Source of the DNA: JBHIER01 sp046760705 [NCBI: bacterium]
GTDB lineage: Bacteria > JBHIER01 > G020348925
NCBI GenBank assembly: GCA_046760705.1
Contig: JBHIER010000011.1
Location: 1 to 18,878 of the forward strand
Reading direction: 5' to 3'
DNA: 18,878 nt
The notes beneath the pieces are model-generated. The model was not told the origin of the DNA. It did not search any database and worked only from the letters and a program-made list of their open reading frames with translations. Shown piece by piece: positions 7,365-13,303 of the stretch. Position 1 is the first letter of the stretch. Each line of letters starts with the position of its first letter. The translations under genes were made by a program, and so were the position numbers.

Positions 7365-8276
7365 GTGAAGAAGGATTTCTTGTCGATAGCCGATCTGACT
7401 CCGGATGGGGTCTGGGATCTGTTACGCTCAGCCAAGGAGATGAAAGTCAGGACGAAGGGAGGGGAATTGTACGCCCCTCTGGCCGGCAAGACGTTGGCCA
7501 TGATTTTTCAGAAACCCTCTGTCCGCACGCGGGTCTCCTTCGAGGTGGGCATGTACCAGTTGGGGGGCAGGGCCTTGTATCTGTCGCCAAAGGAGATCAG
7601 GATCGGCCAGCGGGAGGCGATATCCGACGTAGCCAGAGTGATCTCTCGCTACTGCAATGGGATCATGGCCAGGCTGTTTGCCCACACCGACATGTTAGAC
7701 TTGGCAAAGTATGCATCAGTCTCAGTTATAAATGGGTTGGATGATCTTTTGCATCCGTGCCAGGTGATGGGGGACATCTTCACCATTTGGGAACATCGCC
7801 ACACTCTGGACGATCTAAAAGTGGCCTGGGTGGGCGATGGAAACAACGTGGCCAATTCATGGATCAATCTTGCCTCGAAAATCCCGATGGCTCTTCATCT
7901 GGCCGTGCCGGAGGGCTACGAACCTGATGGGGAGATTCTAAAAGCAGCCTGGAGGGCAGGGATCAGCCAGGTGAAGGTGGTCCATTCCCCCCAGGAGGCG
8001 GTAACATGTGCCGATGTCATTTACACCGACGTCTGGGCCAGTATGGGACAGGAGGCGGAGAAGGGGGAGCGGGAGATCAAGTTCAAGGACTTTCGGGTAG
8101 ATCGAGGGTTGGTCGGTCTGGCCAAAGAGAACGTTATGGTTATGCACTGTCTGCCGGCGCACCGTGGTGAGGAGATCGCCGCCGAGGTGATAGACGGACC
8201 CCGCTCCGTCGTCTTCGACCAGGCCGAAAACCGACTCCACATTCAGAAGGCGATCATGGCGGCACTGATGAGCTGA
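7365..8276 (+). CDS. argF: ornithine carbamoyltransferase
   Basis: The 303-residue enzyme joins carbamoyl phosphate to ornithine to give citrulline in arginine biosynthesis. The carbamoyl-phosphate loop is SVRTR at 52-56 (family: S-T-R-T-R), followed by SFEVGMYQLGG. HPCQ is at 130-133 after NGLDDLL. The ornithine-binding HCLP is at 261-264 in HCLPAHRGEEI. These residues identify OTCase rather than aspartate carbamoyltransferase. GTG 7365 is chosen because AGGAGG (7354-7359) lies 5 nt upstream and the encoded start KKDFLSIADLT is standard; the longer open frame runs through the terminator hairpin. No other arginine gene lies in the window. Expression probably depends on read-through of the upstream hairpin or on a promoter at the end of hslU. 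Confidence 0.95.
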   Translation: MKKDFLSIADLTPDGVWDLLRSAKEMKVRTKGGELYAPLAGKTLAMIFQKPSVRTRVSFEVGMYQLGGRALYLSPKEIRIGQREAISDVARVISRYCNGIMARLFAHTDMLDLAKYASVSVINGLDDLLHPCQVMGDIFTIWEHRHTLDDLKVAWVGDGNNVANSWINLASKIPMALHLAVPEGYEPDGEILKAAWRAGISQVKVVHSPQEAVTCADVIYTDVWASMGQEAEKGEREIKFKDFRVDRGLVGLAKENVMVMHCLPAHRGEEIAAEVIDGPRSVVFDQAENRLHIQKAIMAALMS

Positions 8277-8296
8277 GAGACGACAGGAGACGTCTC
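8277..8296 (+). other. hairpin just after argF
   Basis: GAGACG (8277-8282) can pair with CGTCTC (8291-8296). The second arm also lies in a perfect 12-bp palindrome, GGAGACGTCTCC (8286-8297). There is no T tract, so a terminator role for argF is only a guess. Confidence 0.3.
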
Positions 8297-8331
8297 CAAA
8301 TTCTCCAAGATAATTTTGGACTGGAATTCTC

Positions 8332-8359
8332 TTGACTTTAGACCAGATTTTCGTAAATT
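8332..8359 (+). promoter_or_regulatory. promoter of tRNA-Arg and the TPR gene
   Basis: TTGACT (8332-8337) and TAAATT (8354-8359) are separated by 16 bp, identical in hexamers and spacing to the site at 1625-1652. The start of transcription would fall about 26 nt before the mature tRNA. Confidence 0.65.
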
Positions 8360-8391
8360 TGTTCAGTCTCTTTGCATCTTTTCAGACTTGC

Positions 8392-8466
8392 GCCCCTGTA
8401 GCTCAGGATGGATAGAGCGAGGGATTCCTAATCCCTGTGTCGCGCGTTCGAGTCGCGCCAGGGGCA
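8392..8466 (+). tRNA. tRNA-Arg (anticodon CCU)
   Basis: All four arms pair. The acceptor is GCCCCTG (8392-8398) with CAGGGGC (8459-8465) and discriminator A8466. The D stem is GCTC/GAGC. The anticodon stem is AGGGA/TCCCT around loop TTCCTAA, giving anticodon CCT at 8427-8429 (reads AGG). The T stem is GCGCG/CGCGC with loop TTCGAGT. The 3' CCA is not encoded. A coding gene starts 22 nt downstream with no visible terminator between them, so the tRNA is probably processed from a tRNA-mRNA precursor. Confidence 0.95.
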
Positions 8467-8474
8467 CTGTGTAA

Positions 8475-8488
8475 AGGAGAAGGCTCCT
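8475..8488 (+). promoter_or_regulatory. RBS-sequestering hairpin before the TPR gene
   Basis: The Shine-Dalgarno AGGAG (8475-8479) pairs exactly with CTCCT (8484-8488) across an AAGG loop, and the ATG follows at 8489. The short stem could reduce initiation. It is a sequence observation only. Confidence 0.35.
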
Positions 8489-9163
8489 ATGCCGATGCTG
8501 AAGCCGAGAAAGCGTATCACAAAAAAACAGATCAAGCAGGACAAGCTGGTCACGTATACCTTTAAGATTGTCGATTACATCCAGGATCACTCGAGACAGT
8601 TCACCTTTGGTGTTGTGGCCATCATAGCCGTCCTTCTTATTGGGTTTATAGTGGCCAAGGGGAAGAAACAGAAGGAACTTAATGCGGCGATTCTGTTGGG
8701 CAAAGCCCAACTGGTCTATGAGAGCGGTGACTACGCTGGAGCCGCCCATCTCTTTGAATCGGTGATTCGACAGTACGGCGGCACAGAGAACGGCGGTCGT
8801 GCCACCTACTTTCTGGCCAACTGCTACTTTTTCACCGGGGACGTTGATCAGGCGTTGAAATACTATGAAAAGTACGTGGCCAAGTACCACCGGCTGCCGT
8901 CGCTGACAGCCTCCGCCATGGCCGGGGCTGCCGCATGTTATGAGCAGAAAGGGGAATATGCCGAGGCCGCCCGGCGGTATGAGAAGGCAGCAACTGAGTT
9001 CCGCGACTTTTACGCGGCCCCGGACTATCTTTTGGACGCCGGACGCTGTTACCAGGCAGCCGCCGATACTGCCAATGCGAGAAAGGTCTACCGGAAGATC
9101 GTCGATCTCTATCCCGAGTCGAAATCTCTCCAACAGGCCAAACTGAGCTTGGCTGAACTGTAA
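8489..9163 (+). CDS. membrane-anchored tetratricopeptide repeat protein
   Basis: This 224-residue protein has a very basic N-terminus (KPRKRITKKQIKQDKL), one predicted transmembrane helix at about residues 38-56 (GVVAIIAVLLIGFIVA) and a TPR-like domain to the end. TPR signatures include LGKAQLVYESGDYAGAAHLF, YFLANCYFFTGDVDQALKYY, AGAAACYEQKGEYAEAARRY and DAGRCYQAAADTANARKVY, at least four repeats. The layout (short cytoplasmic tail, one anchor, periplasmic TPRs) resembles YfgM/TPR_21-type ancillary proteins of the Sec translocon, but TPRs are generic and no specific role is assigned. It is probably cotranscribed with the tRNA-Arg gene. Its RBS lies in a small hairpin. Confidence 0.85.
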   Translation: MPMLKPRKRITKKQIKQDKLVTYTFKIVDYIQDHSRQFTFGVVAIIAVLLIGFIVAKGKKQKELNAAILLGKAQLVYESGDYAGAAHLFESVIRQYGGTENGGRATYFLANCYFFTGDVDQALKYYEKYVAKYHRLPSLTASAMAGAAACYEQKGEYAEAARRYEKAATEFRDFYAAPDYLLDAGRCYQAAADTANARKVYRKIVDLYPESKSLQQAKLSLAEL

Positions 9164-9200
9164 GGAGCCTTGACGGCCGAGAGCGCAACAACAAAAGAGA

Positions 9201-9227
9201 GGCCGCTGAGGGTCACCTTCAGCGGCC
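9201..9227. other. long perfect-stem hairpin
   Basis: GGCCGCTGA (9201-9209) pairs with TCAGCGGCC (9219-9227). Inside it a GGT/ACC pairing and one G-U pair extend the stem to about 13 bp. It is followed by AAAAAA on the plus strand, so it lacks the T tract of a plus-strand intrinsic terminator. It may end TPR transcription by a Rho-aided route or protect the mRNA 3' end. Confidence 0.5.
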
Positions 9228-9392
9228 AAAAAATTACGCGGGCTTTCGCGGAATTTGAGGAAAAAGCGGTAGGTGAACTAAGAGGGAAATTTGGAAGGAC
9301 TTGCTTGTCGTTTTGTCAATCAACCCATCCCCGCTACTCACCCGCATTTTCTATATTCACTTGTCAACTTATACGACGTACTGAACGGTCAA

Positions 9393-9416
9393 AAGTTTCC
9401 AATTTTTTTGAAACTT
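9393..9416. promoter_or_regulatory. inverted repeat, candidate operator
   Basis: AAGTTTC (9393-9399) and GAAACTT (9410-9416) are perfect inverted 7-mers separated by a 10-nt T-rich spacer. The half-site core GAAAC is the same as in the phased repeats downstream of the Fic-like gene. The site lies about 115 nt upstream of its predicted -10. Confidence 0.4.
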
Positions 9417-9506
9417 GATAAATTTACTCGGATAGAGCAGTCCCATGATGAGGGGTAGGGGAGGGGCTCTCAAGTCTATTTCCGGGCCGCGTCTGACAAA
9501 TTTCTC

Positions 9507-9535
9507 TTGCCTCTCCCCGGATCGATTGTTATATT
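9507..9535 (+). promoter_or_regulatory. promoter of the Fic-like gene
   Basis: TTGCCT (9507-9512) and TATATT (9530-9535) have a 17-bp spacer. The leader would be about 30 nt and contains TAAGGAG (9556-9562), 9 nt before the ATG at 9572. Confidence 0.55.
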
Positions 9536-9571
9536 GAAAAAGGTGGTGAAGAACATAAGGAGCCCAGGACT

Positions 9572-10675
9572 ATGTTTAGACCCTACTTCGACCTCTCTGA
9601 GGCTTTAGAAAAGCGTCTCCAGTCCATAGACGAGGCGAATGAGTGTCTGAGAGGTCTGACCTTTCCGCCGAGAAGGATGAAGGAGTTAAAGAGGGAGGCC
9701 TTGATCACTTCGATCTACCTGATCATTCAACCAGAGGATCACCGGGTGGGCTACGGCCGGGTGGCGCGAGTTCTCGAATCTATGAGGAAAACGTCGTCCG
9801 ATAGCACAGATCGTCAGATTATGAATATCCGTTCGGCTCTCAAAAAGGTACGCTCCTTCTCCAGTACCTCAAGTAGATTTACCGAGCATGATCTTAAAGA
9901 AGTCTACTCTCTTTTGAATGGTCAACCTGAGGAGAAGCGTTTAACAAGATGGGAAACATGGCCTTATAGAAATTCACCGAGGCCGGTTCTGGAAGAGACA
10001 CAGAAGAAAATATATACCACTGCACCCCACGAAGACATTCCTTCCCTTATGGTCGATCTTTTAGATTGGCTGGAATTCGAAGCCTGTGACCTTCACCCCA
10101 TCATAAAAGCAATCGTGGCCTATTTCCAAATTCTGATTGTGCGACCGTTTCTCGAGGACAATTGTAGAACGGCTTGGTTTCTTTTCCTCTCCACCCTCTC
10201 CAAGAACGGGGTTGATTTCGGCGAGTATGTCTCCTTGGAAAAGAGTATCTTCATGGATCGAAGAAAGTTTCAGAACAATGTATTGAATTTGGTCGCTGCA
10301 ACATACAACCCAAAGAACTTCTCCGAGTCACAATTTCAATCCTATATTAAGTACCTTCTCCCATCCATTGAGGACACTGTAACAGAACGGCGAGTTTGGT
10401 TGGATCGGGAGCACCTGAGAGAGGTGGGGGAGATGCTGCGGAAGGCCAATCTGAATGAAAGGCAGAGAAAGGCCCTCTCTTACGTCGCCCAGAAGGGGAA
10501 GATCACCAACAGGGAATATAAGGAATTGAACGGGGTCCGAGGCCGTAAGAGAGCCTGGGAGGAACTGACATACTTAGCGAAGGAAGAGATTTTACAGAGA
10601 GTGGGCCAAGGGCGCAATGTGGCTTACGAGCTCAGCCCCATAATGGCCCCGGAAACAGTATTGAAACACTTGTGA
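9572..10675 (+). CDS. Fic-family protein with degenerate active site and winged-helix domain (pseudo-Fic)
   Basis: This 367-residue protein has the three-part layout of Fic proteins with a DNA-binding tail. The N-terminal Fic_N-like region is at about 1-60 (FPPRRMKELKREALITS). The central Fic fold includes HPIIKAIVAYFQILIV (H175 onward). The C-terminal winged HTH is at about 294-356 (LNERQRKALSYVAQKGKITN, then REYKELNG). Active Fic enzymes have HPFx(D/E)GNGRxxR and transfer AMP or related groups. Here the motif at 191-202 reads RPFLEDNCRTAW: catalytic His is Arg, both phosphate-binding Gly positions are Asp and Cys, and the last Arg is Trp. The inhibitory (S/T)xxxE(G/N) motif expected after REALITS is also gone (SIYLIIQPED). 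The frame has no interruption and has a good promoter and RBS. AMPylation is unlikely; a regulatory DNA-binding role is inferred. Confidence 0.85.
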   Translation: MFRPYFDLSEALEKRLQSIDEANECLRGLTFPPRRMKELKREALITSIYLIIQPEDHRVGYGRVARVLESMRKTSSDSTDRQIMNIRSALKKVRSFSSTSSRFTEHDLKEVYSLLNGQPEEKRLTRWETWPYRNSPRPVLEETQKKIYTTAPHEDIPSLMVDLLDWLEFEACDLHPIIKAIVAYFQILIVRPFLEDNCRTAWFLFLSTLSKNGVDFGEYVSLEKSIFMDRRKFQNNVLNLVAATYNPKNFSESQFQSYIKYLLPSIEDTVTERRVWLDREHLREVGEMLRKANLNERQRKALSYVAQKGKITNREYKELNGVRGRKRAWEELTYLAKEEILQRVGQGRNVAYELSPIMAPETVLKHL

Positions 10676-10715
10676 AACGATTATGAAACAATAAGGTAAC
10701 ATTTAGAAACGTTGT
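10652..10715 (+). repeat. six phased GAAAC direct repeats (11-bp period)
   Basis: GAAAC-type motifs start at 10652, 10663, 10674, 10685, 10696 (GTAAC) and 10706, spaced 11, 11, 11, 11 and 10 bp. Units include GAAACAGTATT, GAAACACTTGT, GAAACGATTAT and GAAACAATAAG. The array spans the stop codon of the Fic-like gene (TGA 10673-10675). An 11-bp period cannot come from a peptide repeat. Spacing close to one helical turn puts all motifs on the same DNA face, as in iterons or cooperative protein-binding arrays. Confidence 0.6.
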
Positions 10716-10816
10716 ATCAGGTGCGGCACGGGAGTCAGGAACTCAGACACTGTTAATTGTCAATTGGCCATACGGTTAGAGGGTAGAGTTCACGAAATGG
10801 TGATCTTTTGGTTCGT

Positions 10817-10863
10817 ATAATATATATTATGTAAACTTGGAAGCAAATATATATATATATATA
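10817..10863. repeat. AT palindrome and AT dinucleotide tract between converging genes
   Basis: ATAATATATATTAT (10817-10830) is a perfect 14-bp palindrome. A 17-nt alternating AT run occupies 10847-10863, ending 4 nt from the leuS stop codon. TATAAT at 10816-10821 is a perfect -10 match, but no -35 is seen at the right distance. I see no intrinsic terminator for either converging unit in 10676-10867. Confidence 0.6.
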
Positions 10864-10867
10864 CATA

Positions 10868-13303
10868 TCAGCCGGCCACAATACTCAACAACCTCTTCTG
10901 CACGTACACCGTTCTCTTTATCTCTTTTCCGGCTGTATACTTTTGAACCCGCTCGTTATCGAAAGCGACCCTCTTCAGTTCATCCTCTGAAATGTCTGCC
11001 TCAACCTGCAAGTGAGCCCGGATCTTGCCGTTTATTTGGACCACTACGGTGATCTCGTCAGTCTTTATGGCCTCTTCGTCATAACCTGGCCAGGGATGTT
11101 TGAAGATGCTTCCTTTGTGATTCGTCCTCTCCCACAGCTCCTCGCCCAAATGGGGGGCCATTGGCGCCAACAGGAGCGCAAGTGTCTCCAGGGCACGGCT
11201 CCAGTCGCCTGAGTTTATCCTCCCCTCTTCGAGATACAGGTAGTTCACGTACTCCATCAAGGCACTGATGGCCGTATTGAAATGGAACCGTTCCACATCC
11301 TGAGTCACTTTCCTGATAGTTCTGTGTATCATCCGGTTCAGCCCTCGGGGGTCGGCCGTACGGTTTCCTTCCGGCTTTCGCTCAAACAGCCGCCAGACGC
11401 GGTTGACAAACCGAAAGATACCGCCGATCCCCTGATCGCTCCAATCGCCACCGTCCTCGTAAGAGCCCATAAACATCAGATACATCCGAAATGTGTCCGC
11501 CCCGTACTGTCCAATAAACTCATCAGGGTTGACCACATTGCCCCTCGATTTCGACATCCGAGCCCCACCCTGGGTGATCTGCCCCTGGTGAGTGAGTTTC
11601 AGAAAAGGTTCATCAAAATGGATGAATCCCAAATCGTACAAGACCTTAGTAATAAACCGCGCGTAGAGCAGGTGCATCACCGCATGTTCGGCCCCGCCGA
11701 TGTAGTGATCGACAGGAAGCCACTTTTTCACCAACTCTGGGGAGAAGGGTCCGGCTTCGTAATGGGGATCCGGATACCTGAGAAAGTACCACGAGGAGCA
11801 GACGAAGGTATCCATCGTGTCAACCTCCCTCTTTCCTACCCCCCCACACTTCGGACAGCTCGTGTTCACAAAACCGGGAGCCGTAGCCAGTGGAGAGAGC
11901 CCTGTGTGGCTCGGCTTAAATTCAACATCCCGGGGCAGCATAACAGGCAAATCATCTTCTGGGACAGGAATTTGTCCGCATTCTTTACAGTAGATTATGG
12001 GAATCGGCGCACCCCAGTAGCGTTGTCTGGAGACGAGCCAGTCCCTCAGTTTGTATTGGACCGTCTGTTTGGCCTTGTCCTTCTTGTTCAAGTCTGCGAC
12101 GATTCTCTCCGTACATACTTCGTTGGTCAAACCGTCGTACGGGCCCGAATGGACCATGATCCCCGGTCCAATGTAGGCCCCTTTCATCCCGTCCAGGGGT
12201 GAGGTGCCCTCCTTGGGCCGGACCACTTCACGGATGAGCAGTCCGAATCTCCGAGCAAATGCGAAATCGCGTTCGTCGTGGGCCGGGCAGGCAAAGACTG
12301 CCCCGGTGCCATAACTGGCCAGGACATAGTCGGCAATCCACAGGGGAACCCGCTCCCCGTTCACCGGATTGATCACATTGCGCCCGATGAAGATACCTGT
12401 CTTCTCTCGCTCGGCCGAAGCCCGCTCGATCTCAGAGATGCGCTTCGACCTCTCAATATATGCTTCCACCTCCCTGCTCTTTTCGGGAGATGTCAATTCG
12501 CGAACCAGCGGGTGCTCGGGGGCCAAAACGACATAGGTCATCCCGTAGAGAGTATCGGGCCTGGTAGTAAAGACATCGATGGTCCGTTCGTCCCCATCGA
12601 TGTCAAAGCTCAGCAAAACTCCTTCACTCCGCCCGATCCAGTTTCGCTGCATGCTGATCGTCTTCTCCGGCCAGTCGATCTTCTCATGATCCCGGAGCAA
12701 CCGTTCGGCATAGGCCGTAATCTTAAAGAACCACTGCGTCAAGTCCCTCTTCGTGACCTCGGAATCGCACCGCTCGCAAAGGCCCTGGATCACCTGCTCG
12801 TTGGCCAGGACGGTCTGACACTTGGGGCACCAGTTCACCGGAGCCCGCCTCCGGTAAGCCAGTCCGTTCTTGTAAAGCTGGAGGAAGAGCCACTGGGTCC
12901 ACTTATAATATGTAGGATCGCTGGTGTTGACCTCCTTGTCCCAGTCGTACATGGCCCCTATTGCTTTGATCTGGTGGCGGATATACTCGATGTTGTCGGC
13001 AGTACTCTGGGCCGGATGGACGCCGTGCTCGATGGCGTAGTTCTCGGCAGGCAGACCGAAGGCATCGAAGCCCATGGGCTCAAAAACATTGTATCCTTGC
13101 ATCTTCTTGAACCTGGCCCACGTGTCCGCCGGCCCGTAGTTATACCAGTGCCCGATATGGAGTTTCTCCCCAGAGGGGTAGCTAAACATCACCAGAGAGT
13201 AGAGTTTCCTCCGGGTATTGGACATATCCGTCTTGTGGGCTCCGGTCTGCTCCCAGATCCGTTGCCACTTCAACTCGATCTCAGCAAAGGGGTAGTCTGC
13301 CAT
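10868..13303 (-). CDS. leuS: leucyl-tRNA synthetase
   Basis: This 811-residue class I synthetase charges tRNA-Leu. The signature HIGH is at residues 49-52 (GEKLHIGHWYNYG) and the second signature reads RMSKS at 582-586, with Arg replacing the first Lys, a tolerated variation. Zinc-type cysteines are in CPKC and CERC (about 159-180). The CP1 editing domain has TTRPDT (about 245-250) and GTGAVFACPAHDERD (about 330-345), so post-transfer editing should be intact. The ATG has GGAG in the leader; asnS ends 34 nt upstream. It is the last gene of the minus-strand operon, and AT-rich sequence follows its stop. The length is a little below the roughly 860 residues of the E. coli enzyme but no domain is missing. 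Confidence 0.97.
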   Translation of the reverse strand: MADYPFAEIELKWQRIWEQTGAHKTDMSNTRRKLYSLVMFSYPSGEKLHIGHWYNYGPADTWARFKKMQGYNVFEPMGFDAFGLPAENYAIEHGVHPAQSTADNIEYIRHQIKAIGAMYDWDKEVNTSDPTYYKWTQWLFLQLYKNGLAYRRRAPVNWCPKCQTVLANEQVIQGLCERCDSEVTKRDLTQWFFKITAYAERLLRDHEKIDWPEKTISMQRNWIGRSEGVLLSFDIDGDERTIDVFTTRPDTLYGMTYVVLAPEHPLVRELTSPEKSREVEAYIERSKRISEIERASAEREKTGIFIGRNVINPVNGERVPLWIADYVLASYGTGAVFACPAHDERDFAFARRFGLLIREVVRPKEGTSPLDGMKGAYIGPGIMVHSGPYDGLTNEVCTERIVADLNKKDKAKQTVQYKLRDWLVSRQRYWGAPIPIIYCKECGQIPVPEDDLPVMLPRDVEFKPSHTGLSPLATAPGFVNTSCPKCGGVGKREVDTMDTFVCSSWYFLRYPDPHYEAGPFSPELVKKWLPVDHYIGGAEHAVMHLLYARFITKVLYDLGFIHFDEPFLKLTHQGQITQGGARMSKSRGNVVNPDEFIGQYGADTFRMYLMFMGSYEDGGDWSDQGIGGIFRFVNRVWRLFERKPEGNRTADPRGLNRMIHRTIRKVTQDVERFHFNTAISALMEYVNYLYLEEGRINSGDWSRALETLALLLAPMAPHLGEELWERTNHKGSIFKHPWPGYDEEAIKTDEITVVVQINGKIRAHLQVEADISEDELKRVAFDNERVQKYTAGKEIKRTVYVQKRLLSIVAG

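What the first reader, a model, noticed from the sequence alone, without database searches (positions are those of the whole stretch)
9572..10675. Pseudo-Fic: both catalytic and inhibitory motifs lost, winged helix kept
Where active Fic enzymes have HPFx(D/E)GNGRxxR the protein has RPFLEDNCRTAW, and the (S/T)xxxE(G/N) autoinhibitory motif is replaced by SIYLIIQPED. Losing the inhibitor makes sense once activity is lost. The fold and the C-terminal HTH are intact over 367 uninterrupted codons, suggesting selection for a non-enzymatic role, perhaps DNA binding.
Basis: partly seen in the sequence, partly recalled or inferred. Interest (0 to 1): 0.65.

Follow-up and report, generated by a model that had tools for sequence, protein, structure and literature searches.

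The report
Fic-type protein with dead active site
A bacterial gene codes for a protein shaped like a known protein-modifying toxin but lacking most of the residues needed for the chemistry, while its DNA-binding end looks intact; it may have been re-used as a non-enzymatic regulator or may be a disarmed leftover.

Summary
The ORF at 9572-10675 (367 aa) is real: a Fic protein of SoFic architecture (Fic domain plus C-terminal winged helix). The loop reads RPFLEDNCRTAW, as reported. Of 20 columns conserved at 80% or more among 53 sampled relatives, 14 differ, among them the catalytic His, both loop glycines and the second Arg; four of the 14 are mild changes. Outside those columns the protein is no more diverged than its relatives, and neutral drift to 14 changed sites with an open frame occurred in 0 of 2000 simulations in each of three settings. 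So loss was concentrated in the active site while the frame was maintained. No close homologue was found (full-length relatives at most about 27% identical) and no own genome is held, so fixation in a clade and dN/dS are untested. AMPylation is very probably lost; DNA binding is plausible but unshown; a disarmed toxin early in decay remains a serious rival. Degenerate Fic motifs are already in print, and an independent His-to-Leu pair in two Thermotogota genomes has dN/dS about 0.19. New variant of a known kind.

The parts
9507..9535 (+). promoter-like site TTGCCT-17-TATATT with TG before the -10
   Evidence: 9 of 12 consensus matches; 4 sites in the region against 1.9 expected by shuffling, so weak
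9557..9562 (+). ribosome-binding site AAGGAG, 9 nt before the ATG
   Evidence: read from the sequence
9572..10675 (+). pseudo-Fic ORF, 367 aa, SoFic architecture
9722..9739 (+). damaged inhibitory motif IIQPED (residues 51-56); inhibitory Glu55 kept, Ser and Gly lost
9881..10189 (+). Pfam Fic domain match, residues 104-206
9983..10018 (+). predicted flap beta-hairpin, residues 138-149
   Evidence: strands 138-140, 146-149
10142..10177 (+). degenerate catalytic loop RPFLEDNCRTAW, residues 191-202
10427..10642 (+). C-terminal winged helix, residues 286-357, up to 51% identical to winged helices in proteins without a Fic motif

Best explanation
The gene encodes a catalytically dead SoFic-type protein. 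Shown: the catalytic His, both loop glycines, the second loop Arg and several other conserved residues are gone; the frame and start signals are intact, the fold is predicted intact, and divergence outside the conserved columns is ordinary. Inferred: AMP transfer and de-AMPylation no longer occur, so the autoinhibitory Glu-Arg contact is no longer needed; the protein is kept for a non-enzymatic role, most likely DNA binding by the C-terminal winged helix (own promoter or other genes), with the Fic domain serving as dimerisation or ligand-sensing scaffold.
For: This protein keeps 5 of 12 motif columns and 1 of 8 other conserved columns; the 53 relatives keep on average 99% (lowest 92%) of motif columns and 87% (lowest 45%) of the others. 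On a midpoint-rooted tree without those columns its root-to-tip length is 2.18 against a mean of 2.42 (sd 0.36) for the 53 relatives; with all columns 2.35 against 2.27. Relatives with similarly long terminal branches keep the motif: L061, L043 and L090 11 of 12, L104 12 of 12. Neutral simulation: 14 of 20 sites changed without ever a stop in 0 of 2000 runs in each of three settings; 8 sites in 1, 2 and 3 of 2000. Codon score 0.138 in frame against -0.237 and -0.224 in the other two forward frames. Model pLDDT 89.6, pTM 0.86, matching SoFic and Dde_2494. Winged helix net charge +6, relatives mean +3.65, range -2 to 9, n 43. In CccR the HTH represses with the catalytic His mutated (PMC9755527, passages).
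Against: No close homologue, so no direct proof of purifying selection. The model was built with 47 relatives that have the motif; the protein alone gave pLDDT 36.5, so its own stability is untested. Its codon score is the lowest of the 14 genes scored (the other 13 trained the score, which favours them) and GC is low, which fits recent import or relaxed selection. Its terminal branch is among the four longest of 54. The recognition helix alone is not unusually basic (+2, relatives mean +1.3, range -2 to 4), and the winged helix has an insertion. No operator is evident: a 12-bp near-palindrome at 9495-9506 is at chance level (my estimate). A degenerate motif need not mean inactivity: C. fetus Fic2 is toxic (though it keeps its His; PMC5651007, passages) and residual activity of a His-to-Ala IbpA is cited in PMC4454073 (section read).
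Confidence: 0.42

Rival explanations
1. A disarmed abortive-infection toxin in decay: missense loss of the active site removed the cost of an orphan SoFic, and the gene now drifts without function.
For: Sofic is a toxic single-gene defence protein and its active-site mutants lose toxicity (PMC12249575, passages). Solitary gene between housekeeping genes, low GC and lowest codon score. Conserved columns outside the two motifs are 7 of 8 lost.
Against: 14 of 20 conserved sites lost with no stop is not reached by neutral drift (0 of 2000 per setting), though 4 sites would be (60 to 89 of 2000 without counting frameshifts); divergence elsewhere is not raised. A single disarming change would have been enough, yet the whole cleft changed.
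Confidence: 0.33
2. A non-catalytic partner or antitoxin for an active Fic encoded elsewhere in the genome, working by Fic-Fic contact.
For: Campylobacter fetus Fic1 neutralises the motif-degenerate Fic2, and Fic-Fic contact is reported (PMC5651007, abstract and passages). In two Thermotogota genomes His-to-Leu pseudo-Fics lie 4 to 9 kb from an intact Fic.
Against: No second Fic was seen in the window; own genome not held. Inhibitory Ser and Gly are lost. In C. fetus the antitoxin is the motif-intact partner, the reverse of this case.
Confidence: 0.13
3. The altered pocket does other chemistry or binds a nucleotide without His, as in AvrB, which lacks the motif but binds ADP.
For: Pro, Phe, an acidic residue, Asn and the first Arg of the loop and the inhibitory Glu are kept. 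AvrB precedent (PMC2686095, abstract and passages) and the Gln-for-His Doc clade D2 (PMC4454073, section 6 read).
Against: Both loop glycines became Asp and Cys; His, second Arg and the Tyr pair (now Phe-Gln) changed together.
Confidence: 0.07

Closest known systems
SoFic / Sofic (PADLOC SoFic; PDB 3eqx, 3zcn, 3zec)
   Same: Full-length architecture: class II Fic domain and C-terminal domain; best Foldseek matches.
   Different: Sofic has the catalytic His and is a toxic defence AMPylase (PMC12249575, passages); here the motif is broken and of the inhibitory motif only the Glu survives.
Fic protein Dde_2494 (PDB 4rgl)
   Same: Best sequence match in PDB (E 3.5e-8) and top VIA-align row, Z 26.0, rmsd 10.2 over 318 residues, tied within 1 with SoFic and FICD rows.
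   Different: Has HPFADGNGRMGR and SLAIENN; 18% identity.
CccR of Yersinia pseudotuberculosis
   Same: N-terminal Fic plus C-terminal HTH; repression does not need the catalytic His (PMC9755527, passages).
   Different: CccR is an active, secreted AMPylase; nothing in the window suggests secretion.
Degenerate Fic/Doc clades F3, D1, D2 of Khater and Mohanty; C. fetus Fic2
   Same: Fido proteins with an altered catalytic motif kept in genomes (PMC4454073 section 6, PMC5651007 passages).
   Different: The three clades as described change one or a few motif positions, and Fic2 keeps its His; here His, both Gly and the second Arg are all lost in a winged-helix Fic.
Thermotogota His-to-Leu Fic proteins (L106, L107)
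   Same: Catalytic His lost, frame kept.
   Different: Loop glycines and both Arg kept, acidic residue changed to Tyr; different sequence group.

Membership tests
Fic family (PF02661, Fido fold) | Profile score above the curated cut-off | tested here: met
   33.9 bits, cut-off 24
Fic family (PF02661, Fido fold) | Fido fold with flap hairpin | tested here: met
   Model pLDDT 89.6; Z 23-26 to 25 class II Fic or FICD-type entries. The model leans on 47 relatives; alone pLDDT 36.5
Active Fic AMPylase | HPFx(D/E)GNGRxxR | tested here: not met
   RPFLEDNCRTAW
Active Fic AMPylase | Nucleotidyl transfer | not testable with these tools
   needs an assay
Class II (N-terminal inhibitory helix) Fic | (S/T)xxxE(G/N) before the Fic core | tested here: not met
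   IIQPED: Glu kept, Ser and Gly lost
SoFic defence protein | Match to the SoFic profile over both domains | tested here: met
   PADLOC 67.9 bits, residues 73-358; but NCBIfam SoFic equivalog only 28.3 bits against a cut-off of 550, so not an equivalog
SoFic defence protein | Catalytic residues needed for toxicity | tested here: not met
   His lost; the Arg eight residues on is kept; the Tyr pair reads Phe-Gln (the match to Sofic numbering is by spacing only)
Fic-HTH transcriptional regulator (CccR-like) | C-terminal winged helix | tested here: met
Fic-HTH transcriptional regulator (CccR-like) | Specific DNA binding | not testable with these tools
   needs an assay
Conserved pseudoenzyme clade | Same lesions fixed in orthologues with low dN/dS | tested here: inconclusive
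   no close homologue found

The most novel reading that the evidence does not exclude
A lineage of an unidentified, probably uncultured phylum has turned a SoFic-type abortive-infection toxin into a dedicated DNA-binding regulator by dismantling the whole catalytic cleft while keeping the inhibitory Glu, fold and winged helix: a true pseudo-Fic transcription factor.
Probability: 0.25. Interest if true: 0.65.

Novelty: new variant of a known kind. Interest (0 to 1): 0.38.

Why it matters
If the protein is kept for DNA binding, it would show what the common winged helix of SoFic-type proteins does apart from catalysis, and how a defence toxin can be turned into a regulator. It would also caution defence-system annotation: a profile search matches this protein to SoFic although its catalytic motif is gone.

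Tried and rejected
Looked for close homologues in genome contigs (two loci, winged helix only, in proteins without a Fic motif), viral contigs (none), plasmids (56 records, all under 60% identity; of 20 listed the highest is 25.0%; six of the 56 were fetched), phages (3 records, partial, 26.5-29.5%), 103 genomes of the phylum of L001, a record titled Thermotogaceae (21 with a match, three of them full-length Fic at 23-25%), and 395 genomes of the phylum of L002, titled Chitinophagales (22 with a match at 1e-9, full-length ones at 25-27%; partial ones of the Fic part up to 28%). The 34 relatives aligned all show the catalytic His; three have another lesion (L024, L025, L038). Unfetched matches were not inspected. 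A degenerate DNA pattern of the broken loop found nothing in viral contigs. HslU of the window is at most 64% identical to any of the 108 genomes with a match among 148 of the Bacteroidota sample, so the host is probably outside that phylum; its identity stays unknown.

Rejected: chance ORF (2.2e-9); sequencing error as sole cause (14 substitutions without a frame break; inference); a tRNA-bounded island (no direct repeat over 18 nt in 8200-11000). A small antitoxin like the 47-residue AS1 found downstream of E. coli Sofic: no plus-strand ORF of 20 aa or more lies within 10676-10836; upstream in 9164-9571 there are TTG-started ORFs of 82, 55, 33 and 27 aa and an ATG-started one of 30 aa, none examined further. 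Structure prediction from the single sequence failed and was not used. Literature searches for a named inactive or winged-helix pseudo-Fic gave nothing on point: no paper, only PMC2686095, 108 papers of which the 20 listed are mostly materials-science hits (titles and abstract starts seen); one search gave only CccR.

Full report
What is there. The window carries mostly housekeeping genes: an NTPase_1 protein, DUF494, topA, a phage-integrase-type recombinase, hslV- and hslU-like genes, an ornithine/aspartate carbamoyltransferase, tRNA-Arg, a TPR protein (YbgF-like, below cut-off), then on the other strand leuS, asnS, alanine dehydrogenase, a protein with sub-cut-off similarity to YfmF-type peptidase homologues, and pnp (short gene names partly recalled). 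Between the TPR gene (8489-9163) and leuS (10868-13303, minus strand) stands a solitary ORF, 9572-10675, with its own AAGGAG and a promoter-like site. GC falls to about 47% across it against about 55% in the neighbouring genes, as it also does near the left end of the window. Its codon score, though clearly in frame, is the lowest of the 14 genes scored; the other 13 trained the score.

Family. Pfam assigns the Fic family above its cut-off, PADLOC assigns SoFic over residues 73-358, and the AlphaFold2 model (47 relatives plus the query, pLDDT 89.6, pTM 0.86) matches SoFic and Dde_2494 best. The rmsd of the full-length matches is high (7.8-13.3 A), which I take to mean another angle between the two domains (inference); the Fic domain alone aligns to human FICD at 2.4-3.2 A over 236-250 residues. 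AlphaFold2 is insensitive to point changes and leaned on relatives that have the motif; the protein alone gave no usable model (pLDDT 36.5).

The active site. I aligned it to 53 relatives taken from fetched loci: 76 ORFs passed a coverage filter, then winged-helix-only proteins and copies over 85% identical were dropped. They were mostly found with Fic profiles or this protein and taken from the best-scoring hits, so they lean towards intact motifs, and the His-to-Leu proteins described below are not among them. Twenty query positions are conserved at 80% or more. This protein keeps six: E55, P192, F193, N197, R199 and L209. It differs at S51, I54, G56, H112, G130, H184, I190, H191, D195, G196, G198, R202, Y233 and L237; of these I190V, D195E, Y233F and L237V are mild. 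All 53 relatives have His191, Gly198, Arg199, Arg202 and Tyr233; the least complete keep 11 of 12 motif positions. Its partner in active enzymes is the second Arg of the loop (pairing recalled; that Arg's role in gamma-phosphate binding is stated in PMC4454073, section 6), which is now Trp, so that contact cannot form. In E. coli Sofic, changing the His, the Arg eight residues later or the Tyr 43 residues after the His reduced toxicity (PMC12249575, passages); here His is Arg, that Arg is kept, and the equivalent of the Tyr, by spacing alone, is Gln234, after Phe233.

Decay or use. Two tests speak against simple drift. First, neutral substitution on this gene until 14 of the 20 sites had changed always passed through a stop: 0 of 2000 runs in each of three settings; for 8 sites 1, 2 and 3 of 2000 escaped, for 4 sites 60, 82 and 89 of 2000; in the one setting with indels, 2 of 2000 (4 sites) and 0 of 2000 (8 and 14 sites) had neither stop nor frameshift. 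The runs start from the present codons, and the comparison assumes the ancestor had the consensus residues. Second, on a tree from 305 columns without those positions the protein's root-to-tip length (2.18) is below the mean of its relatives (2.42, sd 0.36); with all 325 columns it is 2.35 against 2.27. Its terminal branch is long (fourth of 54 without those positions, third with them), but relatives with similarly long branches keep 11 or 12 of 12 motif residues. Loss was thus concentrated in the catalytic cleft. A late start of decay after functional loss is not excluded, and I found no close homologue with which to measure dN/dS.

Role. The winged helix (residues 286-357) is the part with the closest matches: up to 51% identity (51, 49, 47 and 47% in G089, G001, G052, G050), mostly at the end of proteins of 440-470 residues in which I saw no Fic motif. 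It carries net charge +6 against a mean of +3.65 (range -2 to 9) in 43 relatives; the recognition helix alone is ordinary at +2, and there is a one-residue insertion before it. A Fic-HTH protein of Yersinia represses its own promoter through its HTH, and its His mutant still represses (PMC9755527, passages). A DNA-binding role is thus the likeliest use, but it is inferred.

What is known. Degenerate Fic and Doc motifs are in print: clades lacking the last Arg, the acidic residue or the His (PMC4454073, section 6 read), C. fetus Fic2, which stays toxic and needs its His (PMC5651007, abstract and passages), and AvrB (PMC2686095, abstract and passages). I found no description of a winged-helix Fic with the whole loop lost in searches, which cover open-licence papers only and of which I saw listings and the papers named here. 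In passing I found another pseudo-Fic: in two genomes of the Thermotogota sample three ORFs read LPFEYGNGRV(S/G)R; the one orthologous pair is 94% identical with dN 0.033 and dS 0.171 (ratio about 0.19, Nei-Gojobori in a script), hence apparently under purifying selection, and both genomes have an intact Fic 4 to 9 kb away. This makes the pseudoenzyme reading more credible in general without proving it for the window.

Verdict. AMPylation is very probably lost (about 0.9, my judgement). Use in a non-enzymatic role is more likely than pure decay, but not by much. New variant of a known kind.

Noticed in passing
L106 and L107 (genomes G070, G071, Thermotogota sample): Three Fic-like ORFs with LPFEYGNGRV(S/G)R (catalytic His to Leu, acidic residue to Tyr) and SCALDG at the inhibitory motif; the orthologous pair has dN 0.033, dS 0.171; an intact Fic lies 4 to 9 kb away in both genomes.
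   Followed up: partly
L001 8001-8207, L002 1681-1908: The winged helix of the window protein recurs at the end of larger proteins without a Fic motif (AlbA or Schlafen-like by recall), suggesting a mobile regulatory domain.
   Followed up: partly
L025, L038, L024 (Bacteroidota sample): Fic genes with single motif lesions: HPFQDCNGR, HPFQDGNGW and HPVQDGNGR.
   Followed up: no
L016, L017, L021, L022, L024, L028, L038, L040: Eight Bacteroidota-sample Fic matches contain or run through one TAG codon; could be end-of-gene read-through in the search.
   Followed up: no
window 9250-10860: GC drops to about 47% around the gene against about 55% in the flanks, and an AT-repeat tract lies at 10847-10868.
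   Followed up: partly
window 9495-9506: 12-bp near-palindrome just before the promoter-like -35; at chance level by my estimate.
   Followed up: no
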